Assembly (NCBI GenBank): GCA_003650675.1 | Contig: QMRH01000017.1 | Coordinates: 1 to 36,581, forward strand | From: Thermoprotei archaeon | Lineage (GTDB): Archaea > Thermoproteota > Thermoprotei > Thermofilales > B20-G17 | Reading direction: 5' to 3' | Length of the DNA stretch: 36,581 bases | Shown: positions 8,086-8,616 of the stretch, one piece after another | Layout of the letters: each line of letters begins with the position of its first letter | How positions within the stretch are numbered: position 1 is the first letter of the stretch | The notes under the pieces: generated by a model | The model's input: only the letters and a program-made list of their open reading frames with translations | What the model was told of the DNA's origin: nothing | The model's database searches: none | Translations under genes and position numbers: made by a program

Positions 8086-8214
8086 AACAATACCTCGAAA
8101 ACTATATCCTTGAAGGCTATATGCTTTTTATGTAGTCTGCTGGTAAAAGTAAATAAATATTTTTTATGGCAGAGAACGTGGTTGCCCGTGCATGGTATTT
8201 AGGTTATTTTTGAT

Positions 8215-8397
8215 ATTATGGGAACTTGTGTGGGTTTCTCCCTCAGCCGCCTCGCCTCTAGTTGGTGGTTTATCGGAGGCTACATTCCGTACACCATAGG
8301 GTGCGGGTTACCGGGGGAGCGCCGTCATCGGCTAAGCCTGACGGCATCTAAGGCGAGTAGATAAAACACCATACATAAGGCTTCGAGCTCCCATAAT
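8215..8397 (-). ncRNA. candidate structured non-coding RNA, class unknown
   Basis: The stretch is GC-richer than its flanks and lacks a useful reading frame. On the minus strand its ends pair over 12 bp: 8386-8397 (ATTATGGGAGCT) with 8215-8226 (AGTTCCCATAAT), with one G-U pair that would be a mismatch on the plus strand. Inside, 8351-8357 pairs with 8251-8257 (CTCGCCT/AGGCGAG). Two hairpins lie within: 8321-8345 (GCCGTCA/TGACGGC) and 8287-8306 (capped CACC/GGTG), the second extended by GGUAAC/GUAGCC, again with a G-U pair only on the minus strand. 8315-8319 and 8238-8242 could add a 5-bp pseudoknot. A TATA box sits about 25 bases before the 5' end. I do not see the RNase P CR-I sequence, the SRP helix-8 motif or 5S rRNA motifs. 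Confidence 0.55.
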
Positions 8398-8406
8398 TTC
8401 CAAAAC

Positions 8407-8418
8407 ACCTTAAATACT
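8407..8418 (-). promoter_or_regulatory. TATA box for the structured RNA candidate
   Basis: The minus strand reads GAGTATTTAAGG. At archaeal spacing transcription would start near 8388-8396, at the 5' side of the 12-bp closing helix of the RNA candidate. This spacing argues for an independent transcript, not a leader of lysS. Confidence 0.45.
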
Positions 8419-8616
8419 CAAATAAACAAACAGTCCCACGATTAATGCAAACATAGCGGGGATTAAAAGAAGCCCTCCAAAGAAGAAGGCGGTGAATCAT
8501 ACAGTAGTTGTTTATTCTCTTCCCTAGATCATTATCCTAGTATTATTTTTGCGAAGTGAACATAATCTTTTCCAATATCTTTGCTAGAATGAGGGTAGGA
8601 GCTGTGAGGCGATACC
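8419..8616. other. intergenic region upstream of the surface-protein gene
   Basis: No supported gene. The minus strand has a 28-codon hydrophobic frame at about 8414-8500 ending in LIVGLFVYLSI, but it is closed just upstream by TGA and has no good start codon. The plus-strand end carries the GTGAGGCG ribosome-binding region of the gene at 8617. Confidence 0.3.

What the first reader, a model, noticed from the sequence alone, without database searches (positions are those of the whole stretch)
8209..8418. Unassigned structured RNA on the minus strand upstream of lysS
Seen: a 12-bp closing helix, an inner 7-bp helix, two hairpins, a possible pseudoknot (8238-8242 with 8315-8319), and two G-U pairs that make sense only on the minus strand. 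A TATA box lies about 25 bases before the 5' end. The region has no useful reading frame and is GC-richer than its flanks. I do not recognise the class; RNase P, SRP RNA and 5S rRNA signatures are not visible to me, but RNase P or SRP RNA of divergent form cannot be excluded. About 190 nt, probably an independent transcript.
Basis: partly seen in the sequence, partly recalled or inferred. Interest (0 to 1): 0.65.

Follow-up and report, generated by a model that had tools for sequence, protein, structure and literature searches.

The report
Archaeal mini-transposon with guide-RNA scaffold
The "unknown RNA" before lysS is one of about 18 copies of a 258-base mini jumping gene of the IS607 family, which carries the scaffold of the guide RNA that normally serves the transposon's own RNA-guided protein TnpB; the copy here looks partly decayed.

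Summary
The structured region is real, but it is not a single-copy RNA gene. Window 8178-8435 is a 258-bp non-autonomous mobile element with sharp ends. The model built from it finds 18 places in this genome, and relatives of the class carry divergent copies. The parent transposon lies on another contig of the same genome (G000:C27:22277-24319). It has the same ends, an IS607 serine-recombinase TnpA and a 444-aa TnpB. The last ~110 nt of the element match the 3' end of that tnpB, same strand. A covariance model from the element finds the tnpB 3' end in a genome not used for training (G013, TnpB 42% identical, E 2e-6). A 7-bp stem covaries strongly (81/84 paired cells in relatives and tnpB genes, 0/5000 shuffles). 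So the minus-strand RNA is the TnpB omegaRNA (reRNA) scaffold inside a MITE. The minus strand is right; the proposed limits, closing helix and TATA box are not (the last two belong to subterminal inverted repeats). In this genome most copies, the window's included, have mutated helices. The partner TnpB clade lacks the third RuvC acid (D to Q), so nuclease activity is doubtful. RNase P and SRP RNA are not supported.

The parts
8178..8435 (-). Whole non-autonomous IS607-type element (MITE), 258 bp; left end (LE) at 8435, right end (RE) at 8178
   Evidence: Every copy in the genome aligns from about 8178 to 8435 and then stops
8411..8435 (-). Left end GACTGTTTGTTTATTTGAGTATTTA, shared with the autonomous element on contig C27
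   Evidence: Pattern search: 13 places with up to 3 mismatches, 0 for the reversed control
8178..8193 (-). Right end ATGCACGGGCAACCAC; its last 5 bases ACCAC are the proposed pseudoknot partner next to the guide
   Evidence: 21 places in the genome with up to 2 mismatches, 0 for the reversed control
8386..8417 (-).
   Evidence: 26/32 identity to 8195-8226, score 34 vs shuffle max 25
8195..8226 (+). Right subterminal inverted repeat (likely TnpA binding site)
8372..8379 (-). TATA-like box CTTATGTA (CTTATATA in better-preserved copies), about 31 nt before the RNA's first hairpin; inferred promoter of the RNA
   Evidence: Subfamilies with different spacers keep a 6-7/8 match to TTTATATA at 29-37 nt; mean 6.04 vs 5.01 +/- 0.16 in shuffles (relatedness not corrected)
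8178..8350 (-). Predicted RNA (omegaRNA scaffold), about 173 nt, start inferred about 25 nt after the TATA-like box
   Evidence: Homology to tnpB 3' end, covariance model hits; the start is an inference
8321..8345 (-). Hairpin 1, GCCGUCA-GGCUUAGCCGA-UGACGGC
   Evidence: Conserved in copies, inner pairs covary
8286..8307 (-). Helix 3, CCCGCAC [CCUAUGGU] GUACGGA; 5/7 pairs in this copy, 7/7 in tnpB and most relatives; loop holds the GUGGU motif (AUGGU here)
8245..8270 (-). Helix 5, AACCACC ... GGCGGCU, with two A.C mismatches in this copy; perfect in C27 (AGCCACC/GGUGGCU)
8228..8235 (-). 5' arm of helix 6 (ACCCACAC here, disrupted; GCCCGUGC in tnpB); partner GCACGGGC at 8184-8191
   Evidence: 4/8 pairs in this copy vs 7-8/8 in C27, G027, L031, L037, L039; compensatory GGCCCUGC/GCAGGGCC in G013
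8158..8177 (-). Where a guide would lie: first 20 nt of flank after the right end, GUUCUCUGCCAUAAAAAAUA
   Evidence: Inference from known omegaRNA architecture; not tested

Best explanation
Window 8178-8435 is a non-autonomous (MITE-like) derivative of an archaeal IS607-family transposon. It keeps the two transposon ends and replaces tnpA and most of tnpB by a short segment holding the tnpB 3' end, that is, the omegaRNA (reRNA) scaffold of TnpB, read on the minus strand and ending exactly at the right end. Shown: common ends, parent transposon, homology to the tnpB 3' end on the same strand, multi-copy dispersal, and covarying RNA helices in the family. Inferred: TnpA in trans moves the element as DNA by its ends; where the promoter is intact an RNA is made from just before the first hairpin through the right end into the flank, so that TnpB in trans would receive a guide equal to the insertion site's flank and act on the empty donor site or on sister sites. 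In the window copy the RNA is probably impaired (helix 3, helix 6 and the GUGGU loop are mutated), and the partner TnpB clade has Q in place of the third RuvC acid, so cleavage by this system is doubtful.
For: Dispersed copies with sharp common ends and unrelated flanks. Same ends flank an IS607 TnpA plus TnpB. 77% DNA identity over 109 nt to the tnpB 3' end, same strand, ending at the RE. The covariance model finds the 3' ends of tnpB in G027 (E 4e-22) and in G013, whose TnpB is 42% identical and was not in the training set (E 2e-6). Covariation: 28 double-change cells vs 12.7 +/- 2.4 in shuffles; helix 3 paired in 81/84 cells in relatives and tnpB vs shuffle max 76; compensatory helix 6 in G013. 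Loop GUGGU and end ACCAC kept in nearly all copies. TATA-like box at a fixed distance. Same architecture in two named MAGs, a Staphylothermus and a Desulfurococcales archaeon.
Against: No transcript data. In the home genome helix 3 is not paired above chance among MITE copies (62/84, 1058 of 5000 shuffles reach it), and helix 6 loses its inner pairs in the copies that read CCCACAC, the larger part of the own-genome copies, though its outer CCC/GGG pairs mostly remain; so RNA function may be lost in this swarm. The proposed pseudoknot is nearly invariant and has no covariation support. Hairpin 1 of the MITE differs from the hairpin at that place in tnpB. TnpB has D-E-Q instead of D-E-D.
Confidence: 0.92

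Rival explanations
1. It is only a DNA transposon relic: the MITE moves through its ends and the omegaRNA part is a passenger left over from tnpB, never used as a guide RNA. (This is a rival to the functional half of the best explanation, not to the identification, so the confidences do not sum to 1.)
For: Own-genome copies do not keep helix 3 above chance. The most numerous subfamily has helix 6 broken. Mosaic copies (L032, L034, L035) combine arms of two subtypes.
Against: Divergent MITEs in other genomes keep helix 3 perfectly or nearly so (G038, G036, G023), and subfamilies with different spacers keep a TATA-like box before the RNA.
Confidence: 0.45
2. A new stand-alone structured RNA class (housekeeping or regulatory), possibly a divergent RNase P or SRP RNA.
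For: No Rfam match, covarying helices, and no RF00373 match in this genome assembly.
Against: About 18 dispersed copies with transposon ends and unrelated flanks; sequence identity with the tnpB 3' end.
Confidence: 0.02
3. A cis-regulatory leader of lysS (riboswitch or attenuator), as it lies on the same strand 93 bp before lysS.
For: Same strand, right distance.
Against: The same sequence occurs at a dozen or more unrelated loci in both orientations.
Confidence: 0.02

Closest known systems
IS607-family insertion sequences (TnpA serine recombinase + TnpB)
   Same: Common ends with an element that has IS607 TnpA (NF033518, 199.5 bits, cut-off 110) and TnpB (NF040570, 105 bits, cut-off 100); no target-site duplication; imperfect AT-rich inverted repeats near the ends as described in PMC4227781
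   Different: The window element encodes no protein; no clear GG target preference (only a purine at -1 of the left flank)
TnpB omegaRNA / reRNA (ISDra2, PMC8612924; IS607 reRNAs of RAGATH-18 type, PMC11061315; archaeal IS200/IS605 omegaRNAs, PMC12558985)
   Same: Overlaps the tnpB 3' end, same strand, ends at the transposon right end, stem-loops and a likely pseudoknot next to the guide
   Different: Sequence and structure match no Rfam family; here carried apart from tnpB with its own TATA-like box
ORF-less IStrons of IS607 type (group B, e.g. BcISt1 copies with no ORF, PMC4227781)
   Same: Non-autonomous IS607 elements with RNA content
   Different: IStrons hold a group I intron; none is found here
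Archaeal MITEs, e.g. SMN1 and SM3A of Sulfolobus islandicus (PMC3718332)
   Same: Short, ORF-less, multi-copy, dependent on a transposase in trans
   Different: Those are tied to other transposases (ISC1733, ISC1058) and no guide-RNA scaffold was reported in the text read
TldR, RNA-guided transcription factors related to TnpB (PMC13418256; nuclease-dead nature from own knowledge)
   Same: Loss of a RuvC catalytic acid in a TnpB homologue
   Different: Here the TnpB stays inside an intact TnpA-bearing transposon, and only the third acid is replaced (D-E-Q)

Membership tests
IS607 family (non-autonomous member) | Ends shared with an element encoding an IS607 TnpA | tested here: met
IS607 family (non-autonomous member) | No target-site duplication | tested here: met
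   Flanks of the listed copies show none by eye
IS607 family (non-autonomous member) | Insertion into GG-containing targets | tested here: inconclusive
   Left flank ends in GG in about a quarter of copies, while -1 is a purine in all with a visible left end; the exact crossover dinucleotide is not known, so the GG rule could not be judged
IS607 family (non-autonomous member) | Mobilisation by TnpA via a circular intermediate | not testable with these tools
   needs an experiment
TnpB omegaRNA (reRNA) | Located at the 3' end of tnpB, same strand, ending at the right end | tested here: met
   C27, G027, G013, L141, L142
TnpB omegaRNA (reRNA) | Conserved secondary structure with covariation | tested here: met
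   (family); relaxed in the own-genome copies
TnpB omegaRNA (reRNA) | Pseudoknot next to the guide | tested here: inconclusive
   GUGGU loop x ACCAC end possible in nearly all copies but invariant
TnpB omegaRNA (reRNA) | Guide copied from the flank; RNA bound by TnpB | not testable with these tools
   no RNA data
Active TnpB nuclease (partner protein) | RuvC D-E-D triad | tested here: not met
   D and E present, third acid is Q in C27, G027, G013, L141, L142
Archaeal RNase P RNA (RF00373) | Match to the covariance model | tested here: not met
   No match at E up to 10 in 8150-8480

The most novel reading that the evidence does not exclude
A swarm of ORF-less IS607 elements, each with its own promoter, supplies guide RNAs in trans to a single TnpB that has lost one RuvC acid, giving an RNA-guided DNA-binding (not cutting) complex that is addressed to every insertion site, as a repressor or as a marker of transposon sites.
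Probability: 0.12. Interest if true: 0.75.

Novelty: new variant of a known kind. Interest (0 to 1): 0.42.

Why it matters
It turns an orphan 'structured RNA' into a testable guide-RNA system in hyperthermophilic Thermoproteota: an omegaRNA family absent from Rfam, spread as mini-transposons without tnpB, with one TnpB per genome as the only obvious partner. It asks directly whether transposon guide RNAs can act and spread apart from their nuclease. The partner clade with a conserved D-E-Q active site is a candidate for a naturally altered TnpB inside an intact transposon.

Tried and rejected
RNase P, SRP and any Rfam family (nothing; RF00373 not found anywhere in the assembly). lysS leader (rejected: dispersed repeat). 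Thermodynamic folding to choose the strand (the plus strand folds better, so uninformative). RNAalifold on the full alignment gave a weak consensus because the arms are shifted and mosaic; helices were then named by hand and counted. Plasmid and phage collections: no match. A frame at 8446-8529 has a stop codon and was not pursued.

Full report
What is there. The region 8209-8418 folds better than shuffles on both strands (minus -71.3 kcal/mol, z -2.8; plus -76.6, z -3.85), so folding alone does not choose the strand. No Rfam family matches, even at E up to 10, beyond chance hits far below the gathering scores. The decisive result is that the sequence is repeated: a search of the window's own genome gave 13 matches of 83-100% identity, and aligned with flanks they share sharp borders at window 8178 and 8435. 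The unit is thus 258 bp, LE GACTATTTGTTTATTTGAGT..., RE ...ATGCACGGGCAACCAC (sense = window minus), with unrelated flanks and no visible target duplication. Copies of 67-77% identity occur in other families of the class.

The parent. Searching for the ends alone gave 21 right ends and 13 left ends, none for the reversed control patterns. On contig C27 the two ends lie 2.04 kb apart and enclose a 206-aa IS607 TnpA (NF033518, 199.5 bits, cut-off 110) and a 444-aa TnpB (NF040570 105 bits, cut-off 100; PF07282). The genome holds one TnpB over the cut-off and two IS607 TnpAs. The tnpB stop codon is 15 nt inside the right end; the last ~110 nt of the window element are 77% identical to the tnpB 3' end, same strand. 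That is where TnpB omegaRNAs (reRNAs) are encoded (PMC8612924, PMC11061315).

Independent test. A covariance model built from 19 copies (R1) found 18 places in the own genome and, among 81 genomes of the class, matches in nine other genomes. Two lie on the sense strand at the 3' end of full tnpB genes: G027 (TnpB 78% identical, E 4e-22) and G013 (TnpB 42% identical, E 2e-6), neither in the training set; a third (G027:C25) lies at the end of a tnpB fragment. Two named MAGs (Staphylothermus sp. AUK105; a Desulfurococcales archaeon) show TnpA + TnpB + the same RNA at the tnpB end.

RNA structure. On the 19-sequence alignment the named helices have 28 cells with a change on both sides against 12.7 +/- 2.4 in shuffles and at most 8 in slid controls. 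The clearest is helix 3, a 7-bp stem with an 8-nt loop NNNGUGGU: CCCGCAC/GUGCGGG, GACCGCC/GGCGGUC and GGCGGGC/GCCCGCC alternate. In relatives and tnpB genes 81 of 84 cells pair (shuffle mean 53.7, max 76 of 5000); in the own-genome MITE copies 62 of 84, no better than shuffles (arms read by hand, and four gapped or strongly decayed sequences plus G013 left out). Helix 6 (GCCCGUGC with GCACGGGC of the right end) has a compensatory form in G013 (GGCCCUGC/GCAGGGCC), but is broken in the window copy and its subfamily. The loop GUGGU could pair with the terminal ACCAC; this is nearly invariant, so unproven. The window copy has AUGGU, 5/7 pairs in helix 3 and 4/8 in helix 6: it is probably impaired.

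The closing helix and TATA box fall in a 32-bp subterminal inverted repeat (26/32), which the transposon would need as DNA; the C5b subfamily lacks the closing helix. A better promoter candidate is the TATA-like box about 31 nt before the first hairpin (window 8372-8379); it is kept in subfamilies whose spacer differs (mean 6.04 of 8 vs 5.01 +/- 0.16 shuffled; relatedness not corrected, and two sequences, window and L035, were mis-anchored by the script, which lowers the observed mean). This places the RNA at about 8350 to 8178, followed by a guide from 8177 downwards (inference).

How it most likely works. Shown: a non-autonomous IS607 element carrying an omegaRNA scaffold. Inferred: TnpA in trans moves it; if transcribed, its RNA would address TnpB to the insertion site. 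Doubtful: cleavage, because RuvC-III has Q in place of D in all five intact clade members (C27, G027, G013, L141, L142), while most other TnpBs fetched have D. Two readings remain for the MITE RNA: passenger (about 0.45) or used in trans; the decay in this genome favours the former for the window copy, and the conserved structure and TATA-like box in other genomes favour the latter for the family.

Relation to the known. IS607 elements, TnpB guide RNAs and ORF-less IS607 IStrons are known (PMC4227781, PMC11061315). I found no paper in the library on archaeal IS607 MITEs carrying an omegaRNA; most subscription papers are not held, so this is not proof of absence.

Noticed in passing
L081:1516-2850 (G000:C27), L100, L101, L141, L142: TnpB clade with the third RuvC catalytic Asp replaced by Gln (NAQYVACLNL etc.) conserved down to 42% identity, inside intact IS607 elements.
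   Followed up: partly
L087:2725-3016, L083:3001-3274, L089:3001-3273: A second subfamily of MITE (C47, C3, C11) with the same right end but a different RNA-like interior (GCCGATGAGCTGATGAGCCGTAGGCC...) and a 12-bp stem CCCGTGCATGGT/ACCATGCACGGG.
   Followed up: no
window 8436-8490: 55 bp next to the left end are 100% identical to the flank of the copy on C18 (29520-29574), although the right flanks differ; the one-sided shared flank is unexplained.
   Followed up: partly
L081:1630-1700 vs window 8321-8345: The tnpB omegaRNA has UGACGGC...GCCAUCA inside a 10-bp stem, the MITE has the same arms in swapped order (GCCAUCA...UGACGGC); a permutation whose origin is unclear.
   Followed up: no
G000:C6:31776-32333 (L097): Second IS607 TnpA (213 aa) without an intact TnpB beside it.
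   Followed up: no
L082:3104-3526 (G000:C55): A left end of the element next to a 139-aa fragment of a different TnpB.
   Followed up: no
own genome G000: No archaeal RNase P RNA (RF00373) match in the 96.5% complete assembly; absent from the assembly or divergent.
   Followed up: no
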